A stretch of DNA of 64,000 bases from NCBI RefSeq assembly GCF_001983935.1, contig NZ_CP017641.1, positions 6,543,001 to 6,607,000 of the forward strand, read 5' to 3'. The translations under genes were made by a program, and so were the position numbers. The stretch is from Fuerstiella marisgermanici. Lineage in GTDB: Bacteria; Planctomycetota; Planctomycetia; Planctomycetales; Planctomycetaceae. Shown in pieces: positions 383 to 58,925 of the stretch (its first letter is position 1; every line of letters starts with the position of its first letter). A model generated the notes under the pieces. It searched no databases and had not been told where the DNA came from. It worked only from the letters and a program-made list of their open reading frames with translations.

Positions 383-820
383 AGCGTTCGAGGCGGAGGG
401 GGTGGCATAGCGCCGACGCCCCTGCCGGTTTCTCTCGACGAATCCGGGAAGACTCACATCGCGCTCGCGACTCTACAGCGTTTCACGCTGACTTGTGGCC
501 GCGGAAATGGGTTTGGGTCCTACGTGGGCCGGTTCCCACGAGCCAGAACCGTCCACAACAAAACGTAAATTGCTCTAGACATGCGCACGTGCCGTTCATT
601 GCCCCGCACTTTTGAAGGGCGGGCGGTTCTCAGCTACAGGTGCGCTTCAGGTTGAAGAGCAGTCTGCATGTTGGGGTGGAGTACCACGCCCGCACGATCC
701 TTCACGAGCGGCCAACGCTTAAAGCAACGTTTCGATGTGAAATTTCCTCTTCCCACCGCCTGCGCTCAAAGTGTTGAGACCTCAGGCGGTTCGCGGGTAG
801 GTTGGAGTTGCCGCCCGGAC
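383..820. other. intergenic region between convergent genes, 438 bp
   Basis: This lies between the stop of the partial gene and the stop of the giant beta-helix gene. It holds one copy of the 105-bp dispersed repeat (473-577). I see no gene or clear terminator in the remainder. Confidence 0.6.
473..577 (+). repeat. 105-bp dispersed structured repeat, copy 1 (subfamily A)
   Basis: It starts CTACAGCG and ends TGCTCTA, imperfect terminal inverted repeats. Inside are a small AGCG/CGCT hairpin at the left end, a TTGTGG near the left matched by CCACAA near the right, and an inner CGTGGG/CCCACG hairpin. The core CCGTCCACAACAAAA is shared with the other copies. It is closely similar to the copies at 29330 and 30269 and lies between two convergent genes. 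Confidence 0.9.
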
Positions 821-3800
821 TCACCCCTGCAGCACCATAGCCATGCGGATGGGGTCGGCCATCCATTCGTCCAGCAGCGTTGGGTCGAGTAGCGAGTCGC
901 CCGATGACACGGGAACTTGTTTCGCAGACTTTCTGGCGGAAGCCGTTGCGTCAGGAGACTCAGACGATGGCTCTTCAGGGCTAAACGTCGCAGACTTGTC
1001 GCTGGCCAGTTCTTCAGTCGTCGTCTTCGATTCCGTGTTGCCTTCAACGATGGACGTCATCGTGATCAGCTGCGAGTCCGAAAGCGATTCGACAACGGCA
1101 AACTTCGCTTCAGAATCGTCGTTCACCGCGCCGACAGAGAAGTCGACGGGAATGCTCCACAGGCCCGAAGTGAATAGATTCGAGTCGGCTTCAATCGCTT
1201 TCACCCACACTCGATAGTTGCCGTTTTCCAAGGCGTTGTCCGGCGTAAACGAGGTTTCTGTGACGAAGTCGTTTCGAATCGTAACCAGCAACGTGTCCAG
1301 ATTCTGAACGTGCAGCACGTAGCGACCCGCACCGGTCACTGGCAACCATGAGATCGTTGGCGGGTTGTTGCTCGACTGTCCAACCGGAGCGGTCACAGTG
1401 GTTCGAATACCGGTCTCGCCCGGCAGACTCCAGCCGCGGTTACCGACGGAATCAGAACTGCGAATCCACCAGCGAATCGGGCCACTGGCCAGATCTGTTG
1501 GAGGCGTGTACGACGTCCCTTGAATGTCGTCGACAACGATGTCGCCAGCCAGAGTGCGGATGAAGATTTCGTACCCAGGAGCTTCCGGAATCGCAGCCCA
1601 TTGGAATTCCGGTCGCGGGTTAAATGTGGGAGTCAACGGGCTGACCAACGTGGGACGAATTTCGAACGTGTTGTCATTCGACCATGGACCGGCCGATCCG
1701 TTCGCATTGAAGGCTCGAACCCAGTACCGATAAAACCCAGCCTCCAGGTCGACGGGCGGCATGTACGACGTCTCTGTCGTCATCGTGTCGTTCAGAAACA
1801 GTCGGGTCTCAGCAGGGGACCGGCGCGTAAACCACACTTCGTAACGAACTGCATCGGTCACTGGCTGCCATGTTAATTCTGGTTGAAGCTCGTCCGGGAA
1901 ACGCGGCACGGCGTCAAGGACCGGAACACCAACGGTATCGTTGTCATTGATAGTGACCGTCGTCTGCCCGGTTGTGACGACTGCTCCCGTGACTGCGGAC
2001 AAACTGACCGTAAACGTTTCCACCGCTTCACTGTGACCGTCGTCGAATGTGGCGATCACGACTGTTTGGGTCAGCGACGCACCGGGTTCGAACGTGAGTG
2101 TTTGCCCTACCAAGGGTTCGAAGTCGCTACCGCTGATTGCTGTATTGCTGGCTGCCGAAACCGTCAGCGTGACCGTCGCTGATGGAGCGCGGTCCAGCGT
2201 CACGGTGATGATGGCGTCCTGTCCTTCGACGACCGGCGAATTGCTGCTGATAGAAACCTGGGTGCCGTCCGTCGCATTGGCGTCGAACTCGACTGCACCG
2301 ATGTCGTAGGCGGTGCCCAGAGGCCGATCGATCCCTTTTTGGTCAGTGAAGACTGCCTGAACGGCGAGATTCGCCCCGGCATCGATGGCGATACTTCCCT
2401 GAATCAATTCATGGTATGCCGTCGGACCAGACGTATTCAAAGTCGTGTTTAGAATGGTATTGATGTCGCGGGTACCGGAGTCGCTGATTCCGACGATGTT
2501 GCCCGACGACCCGTCGACAAGTCCTCCGTTTGTGGCTGCGTTTCCAATCAGATTGTTGATGCTGGTCGAAAGATCCACGCTACCCGTCACATCGTCGGCC
2601 GCGCTGCCGGATGTATTGCCCGCGACAAGTGCGTTCCGCAGATCTGTAGATCCGCCGCTGACTGTGAAGATGCCGCCGCCACTGGCATCGACCGCAGCGG
2701 TGTTTAGGGTTACGGTGGAGTTCAGCACGGCCAGTCGACCGGTCGCCGAATTCCACAGTCCACCGCCTTCATTGGCTGCAAAGTTTCCGCTGACCGTGGT
2801 GTTTAATAGCACGCCGGTACCAGCTCCGGTGATGTGCAGTGCTCCCCCGTTGCCGGGTGCCGCTTCGGCTCGGTTGTCGGTCAGTGACGAGTTAGTCACG
2901 GTCGTACGTCCGGCGTTGTCTTCGATTGCTCCACCGGCGCGAGACGCCGTGTTGCCGGAAATTGCCGCTGAGAACACCGTCACGACTCCGCCATCATTCA
3001 GAATTGCTCCGCCCGAACCCGCAGTTCCGTTGGCGGCGTTATTCGAAAACGTCACCGTGCCGTCGAATCCATTTACATCGACGGTACCACCCGCGTTGAA
3101 GATTCCTCCTCCGCCTTGATCAGCAGCGTCCCCACTGGCGACGTTGTCTGAGATTACCGCGCTATCGGTGATGGTCATCGTGCCCGTACCGTTCCACAGT
3201 CCGCCACCTTCGCTCGCCGCTGAGTTCCCCGTGACCGTACCGCCGCTCACCTCAACCGTGCCAGCTCCCGTCACGTGTAATCCGCCGCCGTTGCCAGGCG
3301 AGGCCGCGTTGGTCGGGCCGGCAACGTTGTTATCGAGCGTGACGTTGGACAGTGTGACCTCGCCCGCGTTGGTTTCGATACCGCCACCTGCTCGAGAAGC
3401 GATGTTGCCGGTGATGGACGTATCGGTCACGGAGATCGTTCCCTGGTCGTTGAAGATACCGCCACCGGAACCCATCGTTGCTGGGAAGGTGATCTGACCT
3501 CGCACTTCGCCGCCCGCGTTTTGTGTTGTATGCACGTTGAAATACGTGCCTCCCGCGAATAATGCGGCTTCGTTGGCAGCGGGGAAGTCGATGTCGTTTA
3601 GCGTCAGCTGTAAACCGCCGTTGAATTCCACAAAGCTGGCATTGTCCAGCAGGTTCACGATGACATCGCCATTGGCCCCGGAATCGCCCACATGAATATG
3701 AGCACCAGTGACATCGGCCAGAGCAATGTCGGTGATGAACAACTGAAGGTCGAATGTATCGGTCTCAGCGTTGTACTGAAGATTTGCGGTACCCGTCGCG

Positions 3801-6800
3801 TTGGTCGTTACGGCGGGAACTTCCTGGCTACCGTCGAGTGCCACTGTCGTTCCGCCACTGGCCAGATTGTTGGTGATTGTGGCGCCGCTGATGTTGATGG
3901 TGCCTCCGGCGTTGAAGATTCCTCCACCGCCCTGATCGGCTCCCATACCACCGGCTGAATTATCATCCACCACCGTGCCGCCGGTCACTGTCATCGTGCC
4001 GGTTCCGTTCCACAAGCCGCCGCCTTCCTGAACCGCGACGTTCCCTGTCACGTTGCCGCCAACGATGCCGGTTGATGCCGGCCCGCTCACGTGCAAACCA
4101 CCGCCGTTAATTCCGGCGTGATTGTTCGTCAGATTAACCGACGTTAGTTCCAGCGTTCCTGCACTTTCGATTCCGCCTCCGGCTCGAGCCGTCTGATTGT
4201 TGGAAATGGTTGTACCGGTGATCGTCAGCGTGCCTGTGGCTGCGTTGTGAATGCCGCCGCCGTTGCCCAAACCGGTTACGGCCGAGTTGCCGGAAATGGT
4301 TCCGCCATTGATTTCGAGCGTACCTTCGTTAAAGACACCGCCGCCGCCTTCACCCGGCTCGTCGCCACCGGACGTGTTGCCGGTAATGTCGGTGTCGGTC
4401 ACGTGAATCGCACCAGTTTCGTTGTAGAGGCCGCCGCCATCACCGGTGGCAATGTTGTTGCTGATGGTCGCTCCGGTAATGTTGACGGTGCCGCTTACCG
4501 CAACGATTTCAGCGGCCGCAACCGGCGCGGTCACTCGAAATGCCTGGCCGTTGCCAAGATCCGTGCCGCCGGGAGCCGTTCCCATCGCCGCCGCGTCGAT
4601 AGCATCAGAAATGGCTTTGTCGATGGACGCACCATGGATGACGACCTCTCGCAGGTCCAGCGGGGCCAAATTGTTGAACTGCCGCGCTTCGTCAGGGTCG
4701 GTTAGGTCGAACGTGTAAGTGGTGTCGAGTACGAAGTCGGTGCCCTGCGGATAAAGTGCGGTGGGGTCGATGTCACCGTTTGTGAACAGGTTCAGAAAGT
4801 GAGCCAGCGGCGACACTCCGTCTGGCGGATTCGTGCCGTGAGTTCCCGCGTCTCGCATTTGAGTTGAAGTAAGGTTTAAAAGTACGGGGCCGTATTCCGG
4901 ACGACCTTCCAGAAAGTCCAGAAAGCCATCCTGAATGGTCACGCCATCATTTGCCGCGACCGATGGCAGAATCGAATTTACGGGCGGGAAGTTGTTCGCC
5001 GCGCCGCCAGCTCCGTCGAAGAACGGACCATCGCCCTGTTCAAGAATCGGTCGCGTGCGATTACCAGCGAACTGACCATGGATGTGAGCCACATGGAACC
5101 CGCCAAAACTGCTGAGGTCTTCCATGCCGGTTGCGTTGATAACAACTCGAATTTCCCGAGTTGTTGCCGTGGGCTGCGTCAGCGTGACCGAACCCGTTCC
5201 TGTCACGCCGCTGCCGTTTAGTTCCGTGATGTTCAGCGTAAACTGCTGCGCTTCTGTGCCGTCTGACGAATCGTTAAAGATGCCGCCGCCTTCAATGGCT
5301 GAGTTGCCGTCGATTGTGGTGCCGTTAACGGTCAGCGTTCCGCCAGCGGAATTCCATAGGCCGCCGCCTTCATTCGCCGCGATGTTGCCGCCTACACTGC
5401 CGCCGGTGATCGTTACTATTCCATTACCGCCGATGTGCAAACCGCCGCCGTTGCCCGGGGCGGCATCGGCAATCAATCCAACCACGTCATCGACATCATT
5501 GTTGGTGAGATCCGTGTCGGTCAGGGAGACGCTGCCGCCCGCTGTTTCGATACCGCCGCCCGCTCGAACCGCTTCGTTGCCGTCAATCACGGCATCGTTA
5601 ATGGTGACAGTGCCGCCAGCATTGAAGATACCGCCACCGCTTCCCGCCGCACCGAACGCGATGTTATTGGTGATCTGCACGGCTGCCGTCGATCCGTCGA
5701 TGACGAGCGTACCGCCGTTGTTGAAAATTCCGCCTCCGCCGTCGTCAGCAGCGTCTCCGCCCGCTTCGTTGCCCTGGATTAGAGTGCCGTTTTGGATGGT
5801 CATTGTTCCGGTGCCGTTCCACAGTCCCCCACCTTCGCGTCCAGCCAGGTTTCCGAAGACGCTACCGCCGTCCATTGTGAAGTCTGCGGCGCCGGTGATG
5901 TGAACTCCGCCACCGTTGCCCGGATTCGCTGTCGCCAGGTCGACGTCATTGTTCAGGATATTGACATCGGTCAAAGTGGCCGTTCCCTCGATCAGTTCGA
6001 TTCCCCCGCCCGCGCGGTTGGCTTCATTTTGACTTAGGGTAGTGGCGGTCATTGTCACAGCGCCGTCGGTGCTGAAAATTCCGCCGCCGCTGCCGGATGT
6101 ACCTGTGGCCTCGTTGTTGCTGATGGTGATCAGGCTGCTGGATCCATCAATCGTCAGTGTGCCGCCGTTGTTGAAGATTCCTCCACCGCCATTGTCTGAG
6201 CCAGATCCTTGAGCTGTATTGTTGTTGATGAGGGTTCCGTTGGTGATGGTCATCGAGCCGCTGCTGTTCCATAGTCCACCACCTTCAGACGCCGCCACAT
6301 TATCGTTGACGGTGCCGCCGTTGATCGTGACGTCACCCGCTCCGCTTACATGCAGACCACCGCCGTTACCTGGCGCTGCGGCGTCGGTACCGAATGCCGT
6401 GTTGCCGTCCAGCGTGACGTTTGTTAATGCCAGGCCGACAACGTCGACCACTCCGGAGGCGTCTTCAATACCACCGCCCGCGCGTTCGGCTTCGTTGCCT
6501 GTGATGACAGCATCGTTAATCGTGGCTGTGCCGCCGGCCGCATTGAAAATACCGCCACCGCTTCCCGCCGCACCGAAGGCAATGTTGTTGATGATCTGCA
6601 CGGCAGCCGCCGAGCCATCGATGACGAGTGTACCGCCGTTGTTGAAAATTCCGCCTCCGCCGTCGTCAGCAGCGTCTCCGCCCGCTTCGTTGCCCTGGAT
6701 CAGAGTGCCGTTTTGGATGGTCATCGTTCCGGTGCCATTCCACAGTCCACCACCTTCGCGTCCAGCAAGATTTCCGAAGACGCTACCGCCGTCCATGGTG

Positions 6801-7711
6801 AAGTCAGCCGCGCCGGTGATGTGAACTCCGCCACCGTTGCCTGGGTTGGCCGTGCCAAGGTCGACGTCGTTGTTGGCCAAGTTGACAGAGGTCAGGCTTG
6901 CCGTACCTTCAATCAGTTCAATACCGCCGCCCGCTCGATTGGCTTCGTTCAGGCTGATCGTTGATGAGTTGATCGTCACAGTACCGTCCGTACTGAAAAT
7001 CCCGCCGCCGCTGCCCGACGTCCCGGTGGCTCTGTTGGCGGTGATTGTCGAGGTGGTAATGTTGAGCGTGCCGCCTGCGTTGTAAATTCCGCCACCGCCG
7101 TCAGTCGCGGTGACACCAGTGGCAGTATTGCCACTGATCGTCACGTCGGTGAGGTCGAGTGTCTGGCCGCTGTTCACGTAGATCCCGCCGCCCTGATCGG
7201 CGTTACCGTTGGAGATCGTGACATCACTGATTGACACGGTACCCGCGCCGGCACCGATCTCAAAAACGCGGCTTGCATCATCGCCACTGATCACAACAGG
7301 GACCAGGTTTGCGTCGGAGATGCTGAGATCGTCGCTGATGGTCAGCGACGTGCCGCTTAAGGTGATCGTCATGCCGTTGAGCGCCGGATCGAATGTGATC
7401 GTGTCGACCACGCCCGGTCCGGTCTCTCCAGCAGGCGCGTCCAGAAACGCCGCGTTGGTATTGGCCGCCGTGATAGCTTCCCGCAGGCTAAGCATGCCAT
7501 CGCCGACAGCGCTGCCGTCTTCGATGGTATTGACCATAAACACAGTCAGCAGCATGCGGTCTTCGAGCGATTCAGCGACTGATGTTTGATATCGTGACGT
7601 GTGTCGGCGTCGCGTTTGGCCGAGTGTGGGGACAAGACGATAGCGTTGCGCCGTCGAGCGTCGTGAGTTAGAAGTTTGTGTCAGCTGTGCGAGCCAATTG
7701 GTCAATAACAT
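821..7711 (-). CDS. giant secreted right-handed beta-helix (Pmp-like) repeat protein with CHRD, Calx-beta and FN3-like domains
   Basis: This 2296-residue protein is probably exported to the cell surface. Residues 49-55 are LEDRMLL, matching the LEPR-XLL-type N-terminal motif of large planctomycete surface proteins; a CSLREA-like segment (SLREAITAANTN) follows at about 75-90. Residues about 130-1800 are tandem beta-helix turns built on GGGI-N-GGT and GNxA-x-GGG patterns, as in polymorphic outer-membrane repeats. Two CHRD-like domains interrupt the helix (about 820-1050 and 1285-1410; see HVAHIHG and GAHIHVGDSG). A Calx-beta domain (about 1812-1925, ending TINDND) and three FN3-like modules (about 1930-2190) follow, then a charged tail. 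Start is ATG at 7711; a weak AAAGG precedes it. A stretch of the helix is duplicated almost exactly at 307-codon spacing. Role is inferred as surface adhesion or matrix; no catalytic motif is evident. Confidence 0.9.
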   Translation of the reverse strand: MLLTNWLAQLTQTSNSRRSTAQRYRLVPTLGQTRRRHTSRYQTSVAESLEDRMLLTVFMVNTIEDGSAVGDGMLSLREAITAANTNAAFLDAPAGETGPGVVDTITFDPALNGMTITLSGTSLTISDDLSISDANLVPVVISGDDASRVFEIGAGAGTVSISDVTISNGNADQGGGIYVNSGQTLDLTDVTISGNTATGVTATDGGGGIYNAGGTLNITTSTITANRATGTSGSGGGIFSTDGTVTINSSTISLNEANRAGGGIELIEGTASLTSVNLANNDVDLGTANPGNGGGVHITGAADFTMDGGSVFGNLAGREGGGLWNGTGTMTIQNGTLIQGNEAGGDAADDGGGGIFNNGGTLVIDGSAAAVQIINNIAFGAAGSGGGIFNAAGGTATINDAVITGNEAERAGGGIEDASGVVDVVGLALTNVTLDGNTAFGTDAAAPGNGGGLHVSGAGDVTINGGTVNDNVAASEGGGLWNSSGSMTITNGTLINNNTAQGSGSDNGGGGIFNNGGTLTIDGSSSLITISNNEATGTSGSGGGIFSTDGAVTMTATTLSQNEANRAGGGIELIEGTATLTDVNILNNDVDLATANPGNGGGVHITGAADFTMDGGSVFGNLAGREGGGLWNGTGTMTIQNGTLIQGNEAGGDAADDGGGGIFNNGGTLVIDGSTAAVQITNNIAFGAAGSGGGIFNAGGTVTINDAVIDGNEAVRAGGGIETAGGSVSLTDTDLTNNDVDDVVGLIADAAPGNGGGLHIGGNGIVTITGGSVGGNIAANEGGGLWNSAGGTLTVNGTTIDGNSAIEGGGIFNDSSDGTEAQQFTLNITELNGSGVTGTGSVTLTQPTATTREIRVVINATGMEDLSSFGGFHVAHIHGQFAGNRTRPILEQGDGPFFDGAGGAANNFPPVNSILPSVAANDGVTIQDGFLDFLEGRPEYGPVLLNLTSTQMRDAGTHGTNPPDGVSPLAHFLNLFTNGDIDPTALYPQGTDFVLDTTYTFDLTDPDEARQFNNLAPLDLREVVIHGASIDKAISDAIDAAAMGTAPGGTDLGNGQAFRVTAPVAAAEIVAVSGTVNITGATISNNIATGDGGGLYNETGAIHVTDTDITGNTSGGDEPGEGGGGVFNEGTLEINGGTISGNSAVTGLGNGGGIHNAATGTLTITGTTISNNQTARAGGGIESAGTLELTSVNLTNNHAGINGGGLHVSGPASTGIVGGNVTGNVAVQEGGGLWNGTGTMTVTGGTVVDDNSAGGMGADQGGGGIFNAGGTINISGATITNNLASGGTTVALDGSQEVPAVTTNATGTANLQYNAETDTFDLQLFITDIALADVTGAHIHVGDSGANGDVIVNLLDNASFVEFNGGLQLTLNDIDFPAANEAALFAGGTYFNVHTTQNAGGEVRGQITFPATMGSGGGIFNDQGTISVTDTSITGNIASRAGGGIETNAGEVTLSNVTLDNNVAGPTNAASPGNGGGLHVTGAGTVEVSGGTVTGNSAASEGGGLWNGTGTMTITDSAVISDNVASGDAADQGGGGIFNAGGTVDVNGFDGTVTFSNNAANGTAGSGGAILNDGGVVTVFSAAISGNTASRAGGAIEDNAGRTTVTNSSLTDNRAEAAPGNGGALHITGAGTGVLLNTTVSGNFAANEGGGLWNSATGRLAVLNSTVTLNTAAVDASGGGIFTVSGGSTDLRNALVAGNTSGSAADDVTGSVDLSTSINNLIGNAATNGGLVDGSSGNIVGISDSGTRDINTILNTTLNTSGPTAYHELIQGSIAIDAGANLAVQAVFTDQKGIDRPLGTAYDIGAVEFDANATDGTQVSISSNSPVVEGQDAIITVTLDRAPSATVTLTVSAASNTAISGSDFEPLVGQTLTFEPGASLTQTVVIATFDDGHSEAVETFTVSLSAVTGAVVTTGQTTVTINDNDTVGVPVLDAVPRFPDELQPELTWQPVTDAVRYEVWFTRRSPAETRLFLNDTMTTETSYMPPVDLEAGFYRYWVRAFNANGSAGPWSNDNTFEIRPTLVSPLTPTFNPRPEFQWAAIPEAPGYEIFIRTLAGDIVVDDIQGTSYTPPTDLASGPIRWWIRSSDSVGNRGWSLPGETGIRTTVTAPVGQSSNNPPTISWLPVTGAGRYVLHVQNLDTLLVTIRNDFVTETSFTPDNALENGNYRVWVKAIEADSNLFTSGLWSIPVDFSVGAVNDDSEAKFAVVESLSDSQLITMTSIVEGNTESKTTTEELASDKSATFSPEEPSSESPDATASARKSAKQVPVSSGDSLLDPTLLDEWMADPIRMAMVLQG
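5671..5921 (-). repeat. near-identical internal duplication in the beta-helix gene, copy B
   Basis: This segment matches 6592-6842 with only scattered base changes, at a constant offset of 921 bp (307 codons). Recognisable shared codons encode GSVFGNLAGREGGGLWN and NNIAFGAAGSGGGIFN. The similarity extends more weakly on both sides. It indicates recent in-frame duplication or gene conversion. Confidence 0.85.
6592..6842 (-). repeat. near-identical internal duplication in the beta-helix gene, copy A
   Basis: Partner of 5671-5921, same strand and frame, offset 921 bp. Confidence 0.85.
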
Positions 7712-11129: not shown

Positions 11130-12320
11130 GTGACACAACCAGAATCAGATGAGACATTCTCGCAACCCGCTCGCCTGTCCGGAGCCACTCTTCTGGCAGC
11201 GACGGGCATTTTTGCTGCGGTCGCCGCGTTCGTGGTCGCGTGGGAAATGTTCTTCATACTTTTCCTTGGGATTCTGTTTGGCGTCTTTCTGACAAAGTCG
11301 GCAGGAAGCCTGTCGCGAGTACTGCCGCTTAGCTATCCCGCTCGCGTTGGAGCCGTCACGACACTGCTGTTGGTGCTGGCGATCGGCAGTCTGCTGATAT
11401 TTGGTGTTCGGGCTGGACACCAACTGGCGGACGCCGACAAGCACCTCTTGGCCGCTCAGGAAAAACTGGAGCAGGCGGCGGCTGATTACCCGGCGGTCTA
11501 CTCAGTGTTATCGTCAACACCGCTGATTGGTCGATTTCTGGGCCCGTCTGAATCGAAGACGGATGACGAGGCCGATGCATCGTCGCAACCTGAGGACACG
11601 AAATCGGCCGCTGACGCCAAGTCGTCTGCACCCTCGCAGACTGAGACGTCGGGCTTAACGTCAGGGACCATCTCGAAGGTGGCCGGTACCGGCCTGCAGG
11701 CTGTCTTCGGTTTGTTTCAAACCTCGTTCGGCCTCGCGGTGAATAGCCTGCTCATCTTCTTCGTTGGGTTGTTTCTCTCGCTCGCGCCGGAAACCTACCG
11801 TGACGGAGTTGTGGTACTTTTCCCTCAGCCACGCCGAGAGCGAACTCGCGACGTCTTGAACATCGCTGGCGAAACGTTGTGGCACTGGCTGATCGGACGA
11901 GGTGGCTCAATGCTGGTCACAGGACTTGGTGCCGTAGCACTACTCACCCTGGCTGGCGTTCCGATGGGCGCTATGTTGGGTCTGGCGACAGGCGTGTTGA
12001 CATTCGTGCCGAACATCGGCAGCCTGGTGGCTCTGATTCTTGCGATCCTGTTTGCGCTGCCGATGGGGCAGGGCACCGTCGCGATTGTTTTTGTTGGCTA
12101 TCTGGTGCTGCAACTTGTGGAAAGCTACGTCATTACGCCGCTGATTCAGCAACAACAGGTCTCACTGCCGCCCGCGTTATTGATTTCTTTTCAGGCGTTG
12201 ATGGGCGTACTGTTCGGGTTTTTGGGAGCCGCCGTTGCTTCGCCGCTATTGGCCGCGTGCAAAACACTGACCATGGAAGTCTATGTGAAGGACGTACTTG
12301 GCGGCGAAGACGAACGATAG
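11130..12320 (+). CDS. AI-2E family transporter (UPF0118/PerM-like permease)
   Basis: A 396-residue integral membrane protein of the AI-2E/PerM family. Two N-terminal membrane segments (about 20-45 and 60-90) are followed by a polar, partly low-complexity loop (about 95-190, rich in Ser/Asp/Glu) and then five or six hydrophobic segments including the family-typical GVLTFVPNIGSL and the C-terminal LISFQALMGVLFGFLGAAVA. Members export small molecules or drive Na+/H+ exchange; the AI-2 label is historical and substrate is unknown here. Start is GTG at 11130. The TAG stop at 12318-12320 is formed by the first three bases of a 105-bp repeat element, and the next gene converges from the other side. 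Confidence 0.9.
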   Translation: MTQPESDETFSQPARLSGATLLAATGIFAAVAAFVVAWEMFFILFLGILFGVFLTKSAGSLSRVLPLSYPARVGAVTTLLLVLAIGSLLIFGVRAGHQLADADKHLLAAQEKLEQAAADYPAVYSVLSSTPLIGRFLGPSESKTDDEADASSQPEDTKSAADAKSSAPSQTETSGLTSGTISKVAGTGLQAVFGLFQTSFGLAVNSLLIFFVGLFLSLAPETYRDGVVVLFPQPRRERTRDVLNIAGETLWHWLIGRGGSMLVTGLGAVALLTLAGVPMGAMLGLATGVLTFVPNIGSLVALILAILFALPMGQGTVAIVFVGYLVLQLVESYVITPLIQQQQVSLPPALLISFQALMGVLFGFLGAAVASPLLAACKTLTMEVYVKDVLGGEDER

Positions 12321-12422
12321 AGCAGCTTACCTTTTGTTGTGGACGGTTCGAGATCGTGGGAGACAGCCTTCATACTCTGAATCGCTTGCTCCGCGGCCAC
12401 AACTCAGGGTGAAACGCTGCAG
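12318..12422 (-). repeat. 105-bp dispersed structured repeat, copy 2 (subfamily B)
   Basis: Read on the minus strand it starts CTGCAGCG, contains TTGTGGCCGCGG and the core AACCGTCCACAACAAAA, and ends TGCTCTA. It fills the whole gap between two convergent genes: its outer TAG (12318-12320) is the stop of the permease gene, and the stop of the DUF2156 gene (12423-12425) directly abuts its other end. Confidence 0.9.
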
Positions 12423-13580
12423 CTATCGTCCAATCACACTGCGACGAAGTTGCTTCATCATATTCGTCCAGCTGCAATTGATCGCGCCAGTGGTCTTCAA
12501 AAACGACCACAATGATCCGACGGAATTGCGGGGGGCGACGCACAGATAGCGATCCACGTAGCGCGGTCGAAACCGACTCTTGAAGTGGTCCTGCCCCTTG
12601 GCATTGAAGACAAAGTCCATGCGGTGAAACCAGGTGGACAGAGCTTTTTCGATGCGCCAGTCGTCGTTGCCAATCGCCGCATCCGCGACGTTGCGGCCGG
12701 GAATCAGGCACAGCGAGATCTGTTCTACGTCTTCGTCGCGAAGTTGATCAATCACGCTGCGAAACAGGAAGGCAGTCACTCCGCGCGTCGCGTCCGTGCG
12801 CTTGCGATAGGTTTCAAATGCCCAGCTTCGACCTCCGTCGACCGGACTGCACGCCAGGAATGCTTCAATGACGCCGGTTGACTGCTGGCGGGCCACAAAC
12901 AGGCGACGCCGCCGCAACGCGAAGGGATCGAATTCGCCTTCCAGCAATCGCAGCGGTTTATCAAACGTACGTCCAGCCAGATCCTGCGTCATAATGTTGA
13001 GCAACGTTTCCGCCAGACTGCGCTGTTCGTTCGCGTCCGTGATTTCCACGATCTCCACGCCGGCTCGCGAGCAGAAATTTGTCTGACGGCGCACCCATTC
13101 AAATTTCTTTCCCACCCAATCGATGGTGCGAGGATACAACAACGGTTCTTCGCCGAACTTGTTGACCACAAAGCCCGCGTCACGGAAGCGACGGGCGTCT
13201 GTTGCCGACACGTTGTACACGGCCAGAGTCTGCTTCTGTTGTTCCGACAAAGCCCGCAGCCAGTCGATCATTTGTGGCTTCAGATTCTCCGGAGCCAGCA
13301 GGCCGCCGGCCAGGTGCCAGAAGCGTCCGTCCGCCAGCACACTGATTGCACCCTTGCCGCACGGGGTGCGCAGAACGTGTCCGTCAGAAACAACGATGTC
13401 GTAGCTTTCGGGAACGCAGGCATAGCGATACGCCATCTGCTCAAGCTGAGCGCGTTCACCGGCGTTTAAATCGTGGCGGCTGGTCAGCTTCGATTGGCCA
13501 GAGCGCGCGGTATCCCAGGCCAGCTCTGATGGCTCAGCATGATCAGGAACCCAGGGGGCATCAGTCGTGGCGGTAGACAT
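12423..13580 (-). CDS. DUF2156 / MprF-C-terminal-like acyltransferase
   Basis: The 385-residue protein resembles the soluble catalytic part of MprF-type aminoacyl-phosphatidylglycerol synthases (DUF2156, a tandem GNAT fold). Typical positions are the lead GHVLRTPCGKGAI region, KFEWVRRQTNF, the core EAFLACSPVDGGRSWAFE with the following TRGVTAFLFRSV, and the C-terminal FKSRFRPRYVDRYL. No membrane flippase domain is attached. The family transfers aminoacyl or acyl groups to lipids or other acceptors; the acceptor here is unknown. It is the last gene of a minus-strand operon with a GH3-type enzyme (51 bp upstream) and a GNAT protein. Start ATG at 13580. The stop abuts a 105-bp repeat. Confidence 0.82.
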   Translation of the reverse strand: MSTATTDAPWVPDHAEPSELAWDTARSGQSKLTSRHDLNAGERAQLEQMAYRYACVPESYDIVVSDGHVLRTPCGKGAISVLADGRFWHLAGGLLAPENLKPQMIDWLRALSEQQKQTLAVYNVSATDARRFRDAGFVVNKFGEEPLLYPRTIDWVGKKFEWVRRQTNFCSRAGVEIVEITDANEQRSLAETLLNIMTQDLAGRTFDKPLRLLEGEFDPFALRRRRLFVARQQSTGVIEAFLACSPVDGGRSWAFETYRKRTDATRGVTAFLFRSVIDQLRDEDVEQISLCLIPGRNVADAAIGNDDWRIEKALSTWFHRMDFVFNAKGQDHFKSRFRPRYVDRYLCVAPRNSVGSLWSFLKTTGAINCSWTNMMKQLRRSVIGR

Positions 13581-29329: not shown

Positions 29330-29434
29330 CTACTGCCTTTCACGCTGACCTGTGGCCGCGGCAATCGGTTGTTGTCCTGCGTGGGCCGGTGCCCACTAGC
29401 CAGAACCGTCCACAACAAAACGCAAATTGCTTTA
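29330..29434 (+). repeat. 105-bp dispersed structured repeat, copy 3 (subfamily A)
   Basis: Starts CTACTGCC, contains CTGTGGCCGCGG, an inner GTGGGC/GCCCAC hairpin and the core CCGTCCACAACAAAACG, and ends TGCTTTA. It lies 12 bp after the sialidase-like gene's stop and 10 bp before the stop of a small minus-strand frame. Confidence 0.9.
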
Positions 29435-30268: not shown

Positions 30269-30373
30269 TTACAGCGTTTCACGCTGACTTGTGGCTGCGG
30301 AAATCGGTTTTTGTCCTACGTGGGCCGGTTCCCACGAGCCAGAACCGTCCACAACAAAGCGTAAATTTTTCTA
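30269..30373 (+). repeat. 105-bp dispersed structured repeat, copy 4 (subfamily A)
   Basis: Starts TTACAGCG, contains CTTGTGGCTGCGG, an exact CGTGGG/CCCACG inner hairpin and CCGTCCACAACAAAGCG, and ends TTTTCTA. Its final CTA (30371-30373) is, on the minus strand, the TAG stop of the glycosyltransferase gene. Confidence 0.9.
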
Positions 30374-31633
30374 GCCGGACGTTACAGACCGCTGTTCCCA
30401 CAGCGTGCTCAACAGGTCGTCAAATCGTTGAGCCATCGTGCTGGCAAAGCCGTGATTCTGTGCCGTTACGTGGGCTGCCTGTGAGACAGATTCGGCCAGT
30501 GATTTGTCATTCGCCAGATCCTGCGCGGCGGCGACGATGGACTCTGGTGTTCCCGTGACAATCAGGCCGTTGCGGCGATTTTCGATGAACTCGGGAACGA
30601 ACCCGATGGGGCGCACAATCACGGGCTTCCCACACATCAGGGCTTCCATAATGACCAGGCCGTAACCTTCCGATTCTGATACCAGAGTAAAGGCATCCAT
30701 CGCGGAATACAGGTTTCCCAGATTGTCGCCGCCACGAATGAACGCATAGCGCCCCGGGATGAGTTGGTTGGCCAGATCCATCAGCGGACAGCGCAGATGC
30801 CCAAATCCAACCATCAGCGCTTTGAACTGAGGTGGAAGCTGCGCCACGGCATGAATGATGGCGGCCGGATTTTTTTCTTCAGAGAATCGCCCGACAAACC
30901 CGATCACAAAATCCTCGTCGTGAAATCCGAGCGACTGCCGAACTGTATTGCGAGGATGAGTGGCCGTCAGTCGCTGTGGATCGACGCCGTTGTGAATTAC
31001 GGTGGTTGGAACATCAAAGCACATGTTTTCCTGAACGCGGCGACTCACGGCGATGACGTGATCCACCACCGGTGTCATGCTTTCCAGACGCTCTCGGGTC
31101 CAGTGGCAGTCTCCGTGCGCCACAAAAACACTCAGCGGTGGCCGCACGGCGGAAAACCAGTCCGCGTTTGCGCCGGGGTCGGACACCAGCAGAACGTCAC
31201 AGTCTTCGCACGCTTTTCTCACCGAGTCGCGACCGCCCACTTCCACCGGAACCTGCATCCGCGCCACCTGGGCCTGGTCGACGAGGTCGGTCGTCACTAC
31301 GTAGCGAACAAACTCTGTTTTCTGGGGATTTGAGTAACGACGCAGTGCGTTGAACCATTGGTCGATCCCGGCAGGAAGCAAATGAGTCCCCACATGAATG
31401 ACTCGTAGCGGTGCCCCCGACGACGTCGGTGCGAAACGAAGCGATTCGGGCTGAGGAACCGATGCTCGATAACCATCGCCATAGCAACCATCATCCCCAA
31501 GGTAGGCCGAACGCACTGTCTCCTGTCTGGAAGTGCTCAAAACGGGTCCGGACTGGCTGAGTCCGATGTTGCTGGCGGCAACTTTGGAATACGGTCCGAG
31601 GTCGCTCGTGGAACGATAGAATCTGATTGACAT
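30371..31633 (-). CDS. GT4-family glycosyltransferase
   Basis: About 420 residues. The C-terminal half is typical GT-B/GT4: VIGFVGRFSEEKNPAAIIHA, the donor-binding LVSESEGYGLVIMEALMCGKPVIV (E-x7-E class motif), and LIVTGTPESI. The N-terminal domain includes LRVIHVGTHLLPAGIDQW and VIHNGVD. It transfers a nucleotide-sugar residue to an unknown acceptor, probably lipid or polysaccharide at the cytoplasmic face. I start at ATG 31633 with AAGGGG upstream; a GTG at 31717 would add 28 Arg-rich residues. The stop codon lies in a 105-bp repeat. The methyltransferase gene follows on the same strand. Confidence 0.88.
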   Translation of the reverse strand: MSIRFYRSTSDLGPYSKVAASNIGLSQSGPVLSTSRQETVRSAYLGDDGCYGDGYRASVPQPESLRFAPTSSGAPLRVIHVGTHLLPAGIDQWFNALRRYSNPQKTEFVRYVVTTDLVDQAQVARMQVPVEVGGRDSVRKACEDCDVLLVSDPGANADWFSAVRPPLSVFVAHGDCHWTRERLESMTPVVDHVIAVSRRVQENMCFDVPTTVIHNGVDPQRLTATHPRNTVRQSLGFHDEDFVIGFVGRFSEEKNPAAIIHAVAQLPPQFKALMVGFGHLRCPLMDLANQLIPGRYAFIRGGDNLGNLYSAMDAFTLVSESEGYGLVIMEALMCGKPVIVRPIGFVPEFIENRRNGLIVTGTPESIVAAAQDLANDKSLAESVSQAAHVTAQNHGFASTMAQRFDDLLSTLWEQRSVTSG

Positions 31634-31836
31634 GCGCTGCAGCCCCTTGTGTTTGACGCTGCCATTGGACAACGGGCGACGACAGCGTCGCAAGAGGATT
31701 TCTGCAGGTTCGATCACCCGTCCGGCGTTTCGGAAAACTGCAACGGTTGTGCAGCATTCGCTGGTCGCAAGGACGAGTGTCTTGTCAGAGGCTGTTATCT
31801 GCTACACAGAAACGGCACCTTGTTGATTGCCCATTT

Positions 31837-31941
31837 CTACAGCGTGTTGAGCTGACTTGTGGCCACGGTGAACCGTTTTCGATAGCAAACCGCTTGCCTC
31901 CAAGAGCCCGACGCGGCCACGCGTCAAGGTGGACTTTTCTA
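31837..31941 (+). repeat. 105-bp dispersed structured repeat, copy 5 (diverged)
   Basis: The left part matches well (CTACAGCG, CTGACTTGTGGCC); the right half is diverged (CAAGAGCCCGACG) but the length is again 105 bp and it ends TTTTCTA. The terminal CTA (31939-31941) is the TAG stop of the Ser/Thr kinase gene on the minus strand. Confidence 0.75.
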
Positions 31942-34209
31942 ACGAGCTTCGTCAGCGGAACTGACCTCGGGAGTGGCCATGAGATGTCCAGGCATCTGAT
32001 CGGCACCGGTCGCCTCAGGTACCAGGAATTCTTTTCGATCAGGATCTCGGGATACAAACGGCAAGGACGGTTTTACCGTGGCGATCAGGGCCGCCTGAGC
32101 ATCATCGCAATCGAAACCAGGTTCCCACCAGTTGCCGTCGAACCAGTTTGCATAGTCGTACACAGATCCCGTTGCTGTGGTGACTCGGTCAGCCGCCACA
32201 AACAAATTCGATCGAATTCGAAACGTTGACACGTCTGGAGGCAGTGCCAGCATCAACGGCGTCGCCAGGTTATGAAACGTGTTCTCTGCGATCACAATGT
32301 CCTGACAATTCTCTGCCATTTCAATCGCGACCGAGACACCGGTCGTGCCCGTCGTCATAAGATTGCGACGAATCCCAATGTCGGCCACTTTCGCCTGCAT
32401 GACAATCGGAATACCGTAGTCAGTTGTCCCCTGAATACGGCAATTGTCAATCCGCAGCGACTGCGCACAAGCTGTGTCCTCAGCACCACCCACCACGATA
32501 CCAACACCGCCGCAACGAATGTCGAGCTTCTCAAGACGGACCGGATCTTCGGGCGTGCCCGCGAAGCCGTCGTGTAGATAGACCACGGCAATAGGCGAAT
32601 CCCGTGGCTTCAGCGAATGGAACTGGCAGTCGTGTACGTGCATACCGGGACAGGCACCCATCGCTTCTACGGCATGCTGAAAGACGTCCGTATCTATGCG
32701 GAAACCGGAAATGACCAGGTGCGCCGTGTTGAGTACGCGGATCACCGACTGGTGATCATCCGCCATCAGCGCGGCACCCTGCGGCGCTTCGATGGTGATG
32801 TTCTGCACATGCGGCCCGGAAATCAGCAGCGGCCCTTTGTACGTGCTGCTGTCTGTGATCGAAATCCGAATTCCGGGTCGCGCGGCGTGCAATGCCGTGG
32901 TGATGTCGGTGTATTCGGCACTACCGTCAGCAGCGACGGTCAGTACGCCGTCGCTGAGAAACGAATTCCCCGTTGGTCCATTGTGAACAGTAGCGGCCAC
33001 ACCGCCTGGTGAATTTGACGAATCGGCCTGTTCGAATGTCGGTTCGGTTCCCTTCTGTGAAGTTTTCGGGCCGAACATGACGGCCAGCAGAGCAGCGGTC
33101 GCAACAACGACTGCCCCCAGCACCAAAGACCAGCGTGATTTTTGCGGACCGTATTTCTGCGGGAGTGCTCGTGTTGAGTCATCTCCGGTGCTCGGTTTCT
33201 GATTTTCCCGGGCGAGATACCGAGTCAGCAGGTCGGCGACTTCGTCCGCCGTTTGAAACCGGTCCTCCGGATTCTTTTCCAGTAGTCGATCGATGACGTC
33301 CGCCAGTTCCCTGGGAAGTTTGCCGCCAGCGTCCGCGATACTCGGGTGGCGTTCCGATACGACGCGGCGACCCGTAGCGATCGCGTTATTGGCCCGAAAC
33401 GGCGACTGACCGACAACCATCGCGTACATGACGCAACCGAGACTGAACAGGTCGCTGCGATGATCCAGATCCTTTCCCTCAACCTGTTCCGGCGACATAA
33501 ACGAAGGTGTGCCCACGACGTTGCCGAGTGACGTCAGGTCGGAACGTTCCATGGCGAGTCGCGCCAGTCCGAAATCGGATATCTTCACACGTTCGATCCC
33601 GTCCTCCAGAAGGATGTTGGCTGGTTTGATGTCTCGATGAATCACACCATGACGATGAGCGGCCGCCAGGCCCTGGGCCACCTGCGAACTGATTCTCAAC
33701 AGATCAACAACCTTCAGCGGCGCATCATCTTTGATGCGTGCGTGGAGTGTCTTGCCATCGATGAATTCCATCACCAGGAACGGTTTACCGAACGCCTGGG
33801 ACACTGCGTGAATAGTGACTACATTGGGATGGCTAATCCCTGCCGCCGCCCGAGCTTCGCGGAAAAATCGTTCCCGTGCGGAATCACTGGCCAGCAGATC
33901 CGGCGACATCACCTTAATCGCCACGTTGCGGTGCAACTGTCCGTCAAAGGCCCGCACGACCAGCCCCATTCCGCCGCGACCGATGTGGTTCAAAACGTCG
34001 TACTCGCCCAGACGGCCGATCGCCCCTTTGTGCGATGATGGACTCAACGGCAGACCCAAGACAAGCGTCTCGCGCTCCGGGTACGGAACCCTCGCGCCCG
34101 GCGGCTTGACAACCGTCGGCTCCGAGCCCGAAGGATTCTTGCTAATTCCCTCCGTGCTTTGCGAATCCTCATGATCCGATGGCGAAACAGAAGACGTTGG
34201 TTCAGTCAT
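31939..34209 (-). CDS. membrane Ser/Thr protein kinase with extracytoplasmic beta-helix domain
   Basis: About 756 residues. A Ser/Pro-rich N-terminus is followed by a Hanks-type kinase at about 70-335: glycine loop GRGGMG at 77-82, catalytic Lys99 (VAIKV), HRDIKPAN catalytic loop, DFGLARLA and GTPSFMSPEQ with the APE-like PEQ. One membrane segment (about 355-380, LVLGAVVVATAALLAVMF) leads to an outside domain of about 350 residues with right-handed parallel beta-helix character (AEYTDITTALHAARPG, then repeated short strands with N/G turns such as HVHDCQFHSL and IVIAENTFHN). The kinase would phosphorylate cytoplasmic Ser/Thr targets; the helix could bind carbohydrate. Start ATG at 34209; the frame is open further to 34401 without kinase features. 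Confidence 0.9.
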   Translation of the reverse strand: MTEPTSSVSPSDHEDSQSTEGISKNPSGSEPTVVKPPGARVPYPERETLVLGLPLSPSSHKGAIGRLGEYDVLNHIGRGGMGLVVRAFDGQLHRNVAIKVMSPDLLASDSARERFFREARAAAGISHPNVVTIHAVSQAFGKPFLVMEFIDGKTLHARIKDDAPLKVVDLLRISSQVAQGLAAAHRHGVIHRDIKPANILLEDGIERVKISDFGLARLAMERSDLTSLGNVVGTPSFMSPEQVEGKDLDHRSDLFSLGCVMYAMVVGQSPFRANNAIATGRRVVSERHPSIADAGGKLPRELADVIDRLLEKNPEDRFQTADEVADLLTRYLARENQKPSTGDDSTRALPQKYGPQKSRWSLVLGAVVVATAALLAVMFGPKTSQKGTEPTFEQADSSNSPGGVAATVHNGPTGNSFLSDGVLTVAADGSAEYTDITTALHAARPGIRISITDSSTYKGPLLISGPHVQNITIEAPQGAALMADDHQSVIRVLNTAHLVISGFRIDTDVFQHAVEAMGACPGMHVHDCQFHSLKPRDSPIAVVYLHDGFAGTPEDPVRLEKLDIRCGGVGIVVGGAEDTACAQSLRIDNCRIQGTTDYGIPIVMQAKVADIGIRRNLMTTGTTGVSVAIEMAENCQDIVIAENTFHNLATPLMLALPPDVSTFRIRSNLFVAADRVTTATGSVYDYANWFDGNWWEPGFDCDDAQAALIATVKPSLPFVSRDPDRKEFLVPEATGADQMPGHLMATPEVSSADEAR

Positions 34210-34647
34210 GAGTCTGTCGCAAGCAAGCGAAACGGCGGCATAGATTTCAAATCGGTCACCGCCATTTTGCCAATTTCCGACTCCGTTACAATCCCTGCGA
34301 AGATGTGGAGGGAAGTGGCCCGTCCACCCTGGTTCGAAGAGAAGCGAGATGTGCCAGGAACGTTCTTGATACAGGTCGTCGCTCTTGCTGATAGATATCA
34401 CTCAAATCGATGCTTGAAACAAGCATCGGGGCAGGTTAGATCGGCCAGCCGTCCCGGTCGTGAGCGCAGGTGCAGTTCCTGTTGCGAGAAGGTGATTTCG
34501 ACGTTGAGTTCGCGGAACAGAACAACGATTGCCAGATTCACGTCGCGAAATTTGTGCCGGTCCCACTGTGGATACGCCGCAAAGCGTCTGAATTCAGCGA
34601 GATCCGCTGGACCAAAGCCGCCGATAGCTCTTGTCGATTTAAGGATT
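34210..34647. other. intergenic region, 438 bp
   Basis: Between two minus-strand genes. A stretch at 34470-34670 on the plus strand has a somewhat coding-like composition but no good start and runs into the next gene; I do not annotate it. No repeat, RNA or clear promoter. Confidence 0.4.
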
Positions 34648-44574: not shown

Positions 44575-44679
44575 CTACAGCGAATTTCGCTGGCATCGTG
44601 GCCGCGAAACAGTCGTTTCGGACGATGACGGATGTTTCCCACGGGCCCGAACCGTCCACAAGAAAAGGAAACTGCTCTA
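44575..44679 (+). repeat. 105-bp dispersed structured repeat, copy 6 (subfamily B)
   Basis: Starts CTACAGCGAATTTCGCTGG, contains GTGGCCGCG and GAACCGTCCACAAGAAAAGG, ends TGCTCTA. Lies between the stop of the 228-residue protein and the stop of gyrB (convergent). Confidence 0.88.
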
Positions 44680-51216: not shown

Positions 51217-51226
51217 GTTCGGGCGG
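51217..51226 (+). repeat. target-site duplication, right copy
   Basis: GTTCGGGCGG, identical to 49916-49925. Confidence 0.93.
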
Positions 51227-54901: not shown

Positions 54902-55160
54902 GCAAGCGTGCCGGAGAGTACCGTGAAGCCGGAAGAGTACGGAGAGACCGTATGATGTACTCAACAGCTATCGAAACAACGGCAAACTTTGCGTGACGGT
55001 GATCGGCGGCCGCGAACTGTTCGAGCAATGTTTGTCGAACGGTTGCAGCATTCTCCGCAGATTCCGTTATTCACGAGCGAGCAAAGGAACGATCAGAAAG
55101 CGGGCGATCCGAACCATCGCCGCAATCAGATCAATCGCGTCGCCGCGCTTAATCAGTCGT

Positions 55161-55511: not shown

Positions 55512-55681
55512 CTCTCAACTCCGGGGCGGACAGCATGGCAGCCTGTACTGGTTAGCAACAGGCGAATCGCAGATCGTCGATTGGATCTGCGGATTCTTTG
55601 TCGAGCCTAGCTTGTGCCGCGGCGTCGCGACGTCGGTTCTCAACCACTGGCGGGTAAGTCCGAAGGTACCCGCCTTGTAGT

Positions 55682-57361: not shown

Positions 57362-57802
57362 GATGCCGAACCTTCCTTGCCGTAATTGTTCGAACAGCAG
57401 ATGCGGGAGCGTGCCAAAAACTCGTCCTGTCTGAATGTTTCGACTTTGAGGGCGGGTGGGGCGAAACCCGTTGTGCCGGTCACAGCGTTTTTGCTGTCAC
57501 TTACCCCCAGGAAGGTCGGGTCCGATAAGCCGGGAGGTTTGTGAAGCCAAGGGCGGCTTTGACGTGAACGTGAGGCGTCTCCCGAATTTCGGCCGTCAAT
57601 TTTGCAGTTTGTCTCAAGTTGGCCAGTGGCTCGAAGAAGACCGCCGCGGTCTGAATTGCATGGCTGGTAACTGCGGTTAACAGTGTCTGGCGATCATTCA
57701 GGGCCGGAAGCTGCACTGGAGCAGTTTCCCTTTTGCTGTGGACGGTTGGGGCTCACGGGAAACAACCTTCATCGTGCGAAACGCTTGTTCCCCGGCCACA
57801 AG
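57362..57802. other. intergenic region, about 440 bp
   Basis: Between two minus-strand genes. It holds most of a 105-bp repeat (57717-57821). Nothing else recognised. Confidence 0.5.
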
Positions 57803-57821
57803 TCAGCGAGATTCGCTATCG
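57717..57821 (-). repeat. 105-bp dispersed structured repeat, copy 7 (subfamily B)
   Basis: On the minus strand it begins CGATAGCGAATCTCGCTGAC, has TTGTGGCCGGGG and the core CCAACCGTCCACAGCAAAAGG, and ends TGCTCCA. The TGA stop of the upstream gene lies inside its left end (57803-57805). Confidence 0.88.
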
Positions 57822-58783
57822 TTGGCGCGGAGTTCAGCCAACCGTTTTGTGAACCGGGATCGCTTTTCTTCCGGCAGGCGATTGGCAATTTTTTCACCGA
57901 GTTCGAAACCAGTCTGCCGCTCTGCTTCGCTGTTAGAGTCGGCGACAAACGCAATCACGGCTGCGGCCAGAAAGCCGAGTTGCTGGTCCGGCCACGATTC
58001 GGCGGGCAATTGATCAAGGGAAGCAATCGCCAACGCAGAATGTTGCTTTGCCACAATCAGCTCGACCAAATCCCGAGCCCGATCGGCATCCCGGCCTCGC
58101 ATGCGTGCGATCGTTGTGATCAGCAGACGTTGCAACGGGTCGTCCGCCGTGCTCTGCTCATGCGTTGAACGAGCCAACAGTAGTTGGATGTCGTCGTAAT
58201 AACTTTCCTGAACAGCAACCGACGGAATCAGCGGTAGGACGATCAGGCATTCCTTGAGTCGGTCTGTCTCTCTGGCCGTCGACGGTAGGTCGAATCGATC
58301 TGGTCCCGCTGCGAGCTCTGTCGCGGTCACCATTCTTTTTGCTGCGATTGACAGGTCGTCCTTCGACCACTGCGACATCTGTTCCTGGCCGTGTTGCCGT
58401 TGAGTGGCCGACATGTCGCTCAGAACGCGGCTCGCGTTTTGTTGCTCCGAATACGGAGCGTCCGCGGGCAACGCTTTGATCCATTCCAGCAGAATGTTCA
58501 GGTTCGTCGTGCGTCGAGATTTCGCCAAGTGCAGCAGGCAGTCGCGGAGGACCGGCAGGCTGATGCCGTTGCGTTTGAGTAGTTCCTGGCAGACCGCATC
58601 TGTCTTCTTCAGCCGCAGCAACTTTGAAGTTTCTGTGCCGGTAAACTCGTCTTGCTTCCGTTTGACGGGTTGGCTCGAAGAACGAAACGCCAGGAGCAAC
58701 AACACGACCGTCAGCAGAACCGCCACGCCGATGACGGTCAGGCTTTCGCGATGAATACCAAGCTTTGTTGACGAGCCATTCAA
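57803..58783 (-). CDS. hypothetical membrane-anchored protein
   Basis: A 326-residue protein with one N-terminal membrane segment (VIGVAVLLTVVLLLLAF, about 17-33) and a mostly helical rest with no recognised domain (LLKRNGISLPVLRDCLLHLAKS, LAIASLDQLPAESWPDQQLG). The start is TTG at 58783, supported by GGGAG at 58791-58795 seven bases upstream; a nearby ATG is out of frame. The gene ends inside a 105-bp repeat. It follows the giant redox fusion gene on the same strand and could serve it, but I have no sequence evidence. Confidence 0.7.
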   Translation of the reverse strand: MNGSSTKLGIHRESLTVIGVAVLLTVVLLLLAFRSSSQPVKRKQDEFTGTETSKLLRLKKTDAVCQELLKRNGISLPVLRDCLLHLAKSRRTTNLNILLEWIKALPADAPYSEQQNASRVLSDMSATQRQHGQEQMSQWSKDDLSIAAKRMVTATELAAGPDRFDLPSTARETDRLKECLIVLPLIPSVAVQESYYDDIQLLLARSTHEQSTADDPLQRLLITTIARMRGRDADRARDLVELIVAKQHSALAIASLDQLPAESWPDQQLGFLAAAVIAFVADSNSEAERQTGFELGEKIANRLPEEKRSRFTKRLAELRANDSESR

Positions 58784-58790
58784 GCGTTTT

Positions 58791-58795
58791 CTCCC
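58791..58795 (-). promoter_or_regulatory. ribosome-binding site selecting a TTG start
   Basis: GGGAG on the minus strand, seven bases before the TTG at 58783. Confidence 0.6.
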
Positions 58796-58827
58796 AACTG
58801 ATCAAACAGTCGCGCGTTGGTAGCAAC

Positions 58828-58925
58828 CTACAGCGAATCTCGCTGACTTGTGGCCGCGGCACAAGCGATTCGGACGATGAAGCCTGTTGCGCACGAGCCC
58901 GAACCGTCCACGACAAACTACCCTA
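58828..58925 (+). repeat. dispersed structured repeat, copy 8 (subfamily B, 98 bp)
   Basis: Starts CTACAGCGAATCTCGCTGAC, has TTGTGGCCGCGG and CGAACCGTCCACGACAAA, and ends CCCTA. It is seven bases shorter than the other copies. Its terminal CTA (58923-58925) is the TAG stop of the redox fusion gene. Confidence 0.9.

What the first reader, a model, noticed from the sequence alone, without database searches (positions are those of the whole stretch)
473..58925. A 105-bp structured repeat family always parked at gene 3' ends
Eight copies (473-577, 12318-12422, 29330-29434, 30269-30373, 31837-31941, 44575-44679, 57717-57821, 58828-58925) share a left end near CTACAGCG, a TTGTGGCCGCGG, a right core CCGTCCACAACAAAA and an end near TGCTCTA. 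Seven are exactly 105 bp. TTGTGG pairs with CCACAA, and subfamily A has an inner CGTGGG/CCCACG stem. At least two subfamilies differ in the centre but keep ends and length. All copies lie directly downstream of at least one gene, four between convergent genes. This is more regular than a chance repeat and could be a non-autonomous mobile element, a 3'-UTR RNA or a terminator.
Basis: partly seen in the sequence, partly recalled or inferred. Interest (0 to 1): 0.82.

Follow-up and report, generated by a model that had tools for sequence, protein, structure and literature searches.

The report
Mobile DNA repeat seated on stop codons
A 105-letter piece of DNA that looks mobile, estimated at some 170 copies in this bacterium and found in related genera, often sits exactly on the stop signal of a gene and supplies a replacement stop signal, apparently leaving the protein unchanged.

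Summary
In detail: eight copies, seven of exactly 105 bp. They belong to a family estimated at 166 copies in this 8.92-Mb genome (22 in a 1.18-Mb sample), also found in five of seven congeners and in eight other genera of the family, with length nearly constant. It looks like a non-autonomous, MITE-like mobile element: TA at both ends, target YTAR, clade-specific subfamilies, patchy distribution. No mobilising transposase was found (two families tested, own genome only). "Always at 3' ends" is too strong (17 of 132 copies are divergent), but something sharper is true. In 46 of 132 copies, and 15 of 22 in the unbiased sample, a gene runs into the right end, always in the frame where that end gives its stop codon; about 9.5 of 132 are expected. 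The opposite orientation, which adds about five residues and a TGA, is not enriched (8 genes). Two genes checked keep their C-termini against orthologs. A left hairpin and a TTGTGG/CCACAA stem show compensatory changes across genera, though coevolving inverted repeats could do the same. No terminator signal or Rfam match. Targeting versus selection at stop codons is unresolved.

The parts
473..577 (+). element copy, subfamily A, 105 bp
   Evidence: between convergent genes, not at an exact stop
12318..12422 (-). element copy, 105 bp; its right end (TAG, 12318-12320) is the stop codon of the + gene 11130-12320; the - gene 12423-13580 ends against its other end
29330..29434 (+). element copy, subfamily A, 105 bp, 12 nt after the stop of the + gene ending at 29317
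30269..30373 (+). element copy, subfamily A, 105 bp; terminal CTA 30371-30373 is the stop codon of the - gene 30371-31717 (glycosyltransferase)
31837..31941 (+). diverged element copy, 105 bp; terminal CTA 31939-31941 is the stop codon of the - gene 31939-34401 (protein kinase)
44575..44679 (+). element copy, B-like, 105 bp, 3 nt after the stop of the + gene ending at 44571
57717..57821 (-). element copy, 105 bp; the - gene 57803-58783 runs into its left end and stops at TGA 57803-57805 inside the left hairpin (tail ...DSESR)
58828..58925 (+). element copy, B-like, 98 bp (7-nt deletion near right end); terminal CTA 58923-58925 is the stop codon of the giant - gene 58923-63974
476..490 (+). left hairpin CAGCGT-TTC-ACGCTG of copy 473; kept in most copies, damaged in some (e.g. 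copy 31837)
493..558 (+). TTGTGG (493-498) and CCACAA (553-558) inverted pair of copy 473

Best explanation
A non-autonomous, MITE-like mobile element of about 103 bp (CAGCG...TTGCTC) flanked by TA, inserted in YTAR sites and moved in trans by an enzyme not identified here. Its ends make landing in a TAG/TAA stop codon harmless: on the right end TA plus the element's first G recreates TAG (shown); on the left end the gene gains about five residues and stops at a TGA in the left hairpin (shown). It is found at stop codons in the harmless orientation about five times more often than YTAR site numbers predict. I think this is mostly insertion preference linked to gene direction, with selection removing disruptive insertions (inferred). 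The left hairpin and the TTGTGG/CCACAA pair are probably recognition sites of that enzyme, possibly as folded single strand (inferred).
For: Estimated 166 copies (22 in 1.18 Mb). Flank logo shows only Y before and R after the TA (79 of 82 and 74 of 82). 46 of 132 copies have a gene ending at the right-end stop: 43 at the exact position and 3 shifted by end indels; 8 genes end inside the left end. Expected 9.5 per orientation; p 4e-20 and 0.74. Unbiased sample 15 of 22 right, 0 left. Outside G000, 57 of 221 copies have a gene running into the right end: 51 at the exact position, 6 elsewhere, all 6 with a shifted, diverged or only partly aligned right end. In the 43 exact copies the base left of TA is Y in 41, the complement of a TAR stop. 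C-termini of RpoN (6 of 7 congeners, the seventh cut by a contig end) and of a second protein (7 of 7) align to the last residue. Clade-specific subfamilies. No match in G003 and G006. Covariation over hairpin plus stem: 28 cells changed on both sides against 9.3 shuffled, 0 of 500.
Against: No cognate transposase in G000: five PF13358 hits at four places and nine Y1 loci do not carry the ends; other enzyme families and other genomes were not searched. TA duplication not proven: left and right TA deviate independently. No empty/filled allele pair within one species was seen. Gene calls come from my own codon-usage script, under which a truncated gene would also be called as a gene end. The 132 copies were not drawn at random, and the unbiased 15 of 22 is higher than 31 of 110 for the rest, unexplained. 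The few loci of G070, G027 and G011 show no right-end stop.
Confidence: 0.7

Rival explanations
1. Same mobile element, but the stop-codon excess is purely selective: insertion in YTAR is blind, and only stop codons in the orientation that restores TAG are truly neutral; other insertions are purged.
For: Of 132 copies only one (L039) lies within a called gene, though 2780 of 3945 YTAR sites are coding. The left-end orientation, which adds residues, is rarer (8 against 46).
Against: It needs most intergenic insertions to be purged, including those between convergent genes, where occupancy per site is about four times lower than at stops (odds ratio 4.2). The stop-codon fraction shows no clear trend with copy age (0.33, 0.50, 0.16, 0.28, 0.42 from young to old).
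Confidence: 0.35
2. A structured RNA element (3'-UTR stabiliser or processing site) retained because it works downstream of genes.
For: Left hairpin and TTGTGG/CCACAA stem with compensatory changes across genera; orientation bias towards genes.
Against: 80 of 132 copies are not at a stop, 17 of them between divergent genes. Stop-codon copies are not consistently less diverged: A p 0.85, B more diverged p 0.03, C less diverged p 0.08. No Rfam match.
Confidence: 0.1
3. An IS630/Tc1-type MITE like RUP or Correia, with ordinary TA duplication and a lost partner (this overlaps with the best explanation; it names the enzyme class).
For: Size, TA at both ends, YTAR target, imperfect terminal inverted repeats, no ORF noticed.
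Against: The resident IS630 copies have unrelated ends; TA duplication not shown; a one-sided terminal hairpin is unusual for that class (recall).
Confidence: 0.4

Closest known systems
RUP of Streptococcus pneumoniae (107 bp, IS630-Spn1)
   Same: Size, copy number of 108, TA at termini, no open reading frame (PMC2229807, passages read)
   Different: RUP terminal repeats resemble those of IS630-Spn1; here no partner was found. RUP is described as intergenic (with some in IS elements); here a third or more sit on stop codons
Correia/NEMIS of Neisseria (107 and 155 bp)
   Same: TA-flanked MITE with fixed length classes (PMC2229807, passages read)
   Different: The 107-bp form has ORFs found fused to other ORFs; this element ends genes at its edge. 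Its terminal repeats are 24 bp, those here are imperfect
ERIC / RU-1 (127 bp, enterobacteria)
   Same: TA termini, mostly intergenic; in one case it removed a gene's stop codon (PMC2759123, passages read)
   Different: That case extended the protein; no systematic restored-stop placement appears in the passages I read
GTAG REPs with RAYT transposases
   Same: Mostly downstream of genes, hairpin-based, reported in planctomycetes (PMC3733652, passages read)
   Different: 20-40 bp with a GTAG tag; here 105 bp, no such tag, and the nine Y1 loci of G000 do not carry the ends

Membership tests
IS630/Tc1-type MITE | TA at both termini in a TA-containing target | tested here: met
   flank logo of 82 copies
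IS630/Tc1-type MITE | TA is a duplicated target | tested here: inconclusive
   left and right TA deviate independently in 102 copies; an empty YTAR site reads the same with or without duplication
IS630/Tc1-type MITE | terminal inverted repeats | tested here: met
   imperfect, read by eye; TTGTGG equally far from each end, pairing kept in most sequences
IS630/Tc1-type MITE | cognate IS630 element with the same ends | tested here: not met
   five PF13358 hits at four places in G000, ends unrelated. Other genomes not tested, so a lost or remote partner is not excluded
GTAG REP / RAYT | GTAG tag at the hairpin and short size | tested here: not met
   consensus read by eye
GTAG REP / RAYT | Y1 transposase flanked by the repeat | tested here: not met
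   nine Y1 loci in G000; one (L235) has a single ordinary copy nearby, about what chance gives by my arithmetic
integron attC site | RYYYAAC / GTTRRRY simple sites (recalled) and gene cassette arrays | tested here: not met
   no such conserved ends seen by eye; copies dispersed
intrinsic terminator | G+C hairpin followed by T run | tested here: not met
   two stretches with five copies: three hits, no excess over shuffles (means 2.8 and 2.7 per stretch), none wholly in an element; one at 57706-57729 spans flank and element end
known Rfam RNA | match to a curated family | tested here: not met
   window at gathering threshold; one copy at E up to 5

The most novel reading that the evidence does not exclude
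A mobile element that homes to translation stop codons in a direction set by the gene, recognised as a folded single strand, for example through a transcription- or translation-coupled or RNA-mediated insertion step at UA/R.
Probability: 0.15. Interest if true: 0.9.

Novelty: new variant of a known kind. Interest (0 to 1): 0.6.

Why it matters
Insertion at the one place in a gene where nothing is lost, with ends that recreate the stop codon, would be a clear example of how a small mobile element can reach high copy number in a gene-dense genome. The contrast between the two orientations at the same palindromic target makes targeting versus selection directly testable. The two congeners without copies give a way to look for an unidentified bacterial transposition enzyme.

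Tried and rejected
Autonomous partner: IS630 (PF13358) loci have other terminal repeats or none found; Y1 loci lack the ends; ten left-end-only copies in G000 and relatives had no convincing right end downstream in the DNA held, but several had little sequence left (L374 290 nt, L395 497 nt), so a longer element there is not excluded. Conserved inner stem: rejected, each subfamily has its own centre. Functional constraint on stop-codon copies: not supported. Hidden small genes behind the other copies: no frame-0 excess in the 63 copies tested. Age effect: none clear. G.U-type pairs as proof of an RNA strand: dropped, since any transition in the right arm keeps such a pair. Orthologs of two window genes at element ends were of no use: one belongs to a large kinase family, the other had only weak matches.

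Literature: searches (two returned no paper) gave nothing, in listings or in the passages I read, that describes a repeat with systematic restored stop codons. Passages only were read of PMC2229807, PMC3733652, PMC5177795, PMC6382973, PMC2759123 and PMC2817692. The library is open-access papers only. PMC6382973 reports single cases of a MITE or IS changing a gene's 3' end. In PMC5177795, which describes Fuerstia marisgermanicae, the words transposase, mobile, insertion sequence and stop codon do not occur.

Full report
Observation. The eight copies are real and at the stated places; seven are 105 bp, one is 98 bp. Two are on the minus strand. The genome (G000, one contig of 8.92 Mb) holds many more: in 59 evenly spaced 20-kb stretches outside the window there are 22, which scales to about 166; a left-end pattern has 158 matches against 0 for its control. 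The window, with 8 in 64 kb, is enriched.

Spread. BLAST finds the family in five of seven congeners (G001, G002, G004, G005, G007; lists capped), not in G003 and G006, and one weak hit in another genus. G003 and G006 stay negative with looser filters. Match counts were G117 150, G070 150, G011 105, G027 32, G088 6; at most 150 candidates were scored per genome. The records whose titles are shown (80 rows, scan stopped at its limit) are mostly Fuerstiella and unnamed Planctomycetaceae assemblies.

Anatomy. Consensus in this genus: Y-TA-CAGCGWNNNWCGCTG-ACTTGTGGCCGCG...CCCACGAGCC...CCACAACAA..GTAAA.TGCTC-TA-R. Subfamilies are largely species- or clade-specific: A, B and C in G000, one each dominant in G004 and G005, one shared by G001, G002 and G007. 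Centres differ, yet length hardly changes: 114 of 132 G000 copies are 105 by model alignment; in other genera most copies looked at span 103-107, with exceptions such as a 139-nt one. In the flanks only Y before the left TA (79 of 82) and R after the right TA (74 of 82) are constrained, so the target is YTAR. Whether TA is duplicated cannot be decided: among 102 copies TA is intact on the left in 86 and on the right in 82, and the deviations are independent (3 copies deviate at both ends, about 3 expected by my arithmetic).

Stop codons. With a codon-usage gene finder written here (84% coding) I examined 132 distinct G000 copies. These are the union of BLAST hits, pattern hits and the random sample, so not a random draw. 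In 46 a gene runs into the right end: 43 end exactly in the terminal TAG, and three end at a TAG or TAA at an end shifted by small indels. No gene with an intact right end enters in another frame. In 8 a gene enters the left end; 6 stop at the TGA in the hairpin (tails such as YSESR). Two copies, L038 and L053, end genes on both sides. One copy (L039) is covered by a spanning gene call. In the unbiased sample it is 15 of 22 right-end and 0 left-end; in the window 4 and 1 of 8. That the unbiased sample is higher than the rest (31 of 110 by subtraction) is not explained.

Null model. In the 59 stretches there are 167 YTAR sites at stop codons, 998 between genes and 2780 inside genes. Leaving out coding sites, about 9.5 of 132 copies are expected per orientation at stops: 46 (p 4e-20) and 8 (p 0.74) are seen. 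Copies are not independent draws, so p is only a guide. Copies with neither kind of end split (-,-) 23, (+,+) 20, (+,-) 18, (-,+) 17, with two lacking a called neighbour. Against intergenic YTAR sites (tandem 478, divergent 310, convergent 136) this is a mild shift from divergent to convergent gaps. There is also a short-distance group outside the exact class: a gene ends within 25 nt before the left end in 16 copies and within 25 nt of the right end in 9; I have not explained it. Most of the 3' bias is still the exact-stop class.

Other genomes. Of 221 distinct copies outside G000, 57 have a gene running into the right end, 51 exactly; the other six have shifted, diverged or partly aligned right ends. 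Many of these loci come from short contigs with cut flanks. In other genera: G117 5 of 19 copies (4 at the exact position, one shifted by 1 nt), G088 3 of the 5 copies aligned, G070, G027 and G011 none in the 6 loci each, so the habit may vary; the gene finder was trained on G000 and is less reliable there. In G070, G088 and G011 most copies begin CTAG on the left, so that end too would give TAG at once; one copy each in G088 (L298) and G011 (L318) has a called gene ending at that TAG.

Original stop codons. In the 43 exact cases the base left of TA is Y in 41, the complement of a TAR stop (30 imply TAG, 11 TAA). RpoN proteins of 6 of 7 congeners align to the last residue of the G000 protein that ends in the element (the seventh is cut by a contig end); a second protein does so in 7 of 7. 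In these two genes the insertion hit the stop rather than truncating the gene; the other genes were not checked this way. The same rpoN stop also carries an element in G002 (28.5 bits); G001 looks similar by eye only. Another gene's stop is occupied in G000 and G005 by copies of different subfamilies, with a 10-nt repeat between gene and element in G005. This suggests repeated hits on one stop codon but could be replacement of an old copy. One insertion is shared by G002 and G007, so copies can also be inherited.

Structure. On 20 sequences from this genus and six others the left hairpin (pair 4-18: CG 7, GC 6, AU 3, unpaired 4) and the TTGTGG/CCACAA stem vary in a compensatory way: together 28 cells changed on both sides against 9.3 shuffled, 0 of 500; 12 of the 28 are in the stem. 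A rival pairing of TGTGGC with GCCA fits too (column 26 with 73: GC 14, CG 3, UA 3). The shuffle control does not allow for relatedness. Within the genus-level alignment the signal is weak. The hairpin of G011 is in a shifted register. Because TTGTGG lies equally far from both ends, coevolving terminal repeats bound by one protein explain the stem as well. Single-strand DNA folding of three window copies gives z from -1.65 to -3.09 over both strands.

Function and partner. No Rfam match, no terminator-like hit wholly within the five copies scanned. Within subfamilies the left 28 nt differ less (3.2%) than the centre (8.4%). Stop-codon copies are not consistently better conserved and their share shows no clear trend with age. 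No IS630 or Y1 gene found in G000 bears the ends.

Verdict. A new MITE-like family with a precise, orientation-dependent stop-codon habit. Mobility and the restored stop are well supported; targeting, strand and enzyme are inferred.

Noticed in passing
window 57717-58925: Two copies in inverted orientation flank a 326-aa ORF (57803-58783, -) without a Pfam match, whose end lies inside one copy.
   Followed up: partly
window 821-7711: A 2296-aa ORF with many internal DNA repeats.
   Followed up: no
window 31939-34401: Protein kinase gene with 98 matches in this genome and 44 to 119 in each congener: a large kinase expansion.
   Followed up: no
L254 (G000 5253990-5257212): Two left ends with identical matched sequence 122 bp apart, perhaps a tandem duplication.
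   Followed up: partly
L250, element at 1497 on the minus strand: Element cut after model position 78; the sequence that follows holds a short transposase-like ORF (IS3-like by recall).
   Followed up: partly
L393 (CATMOC010000297.1): Exact left-end match on a 5.4-kb contig labelled Mesorhizobium; perhaps a misbinned planctomycete contig.
   Followed up: no
G003, G006: Two congeners with no detectable copy, useful for finding the mobilising enzyme by gene-content comparison.
   Followed up: partly
G000 copies, left end: 16 copies have a gene ending within 25 nt before the left end without entering it; perhaps older hits whose edge has changed.
   Followed up: no
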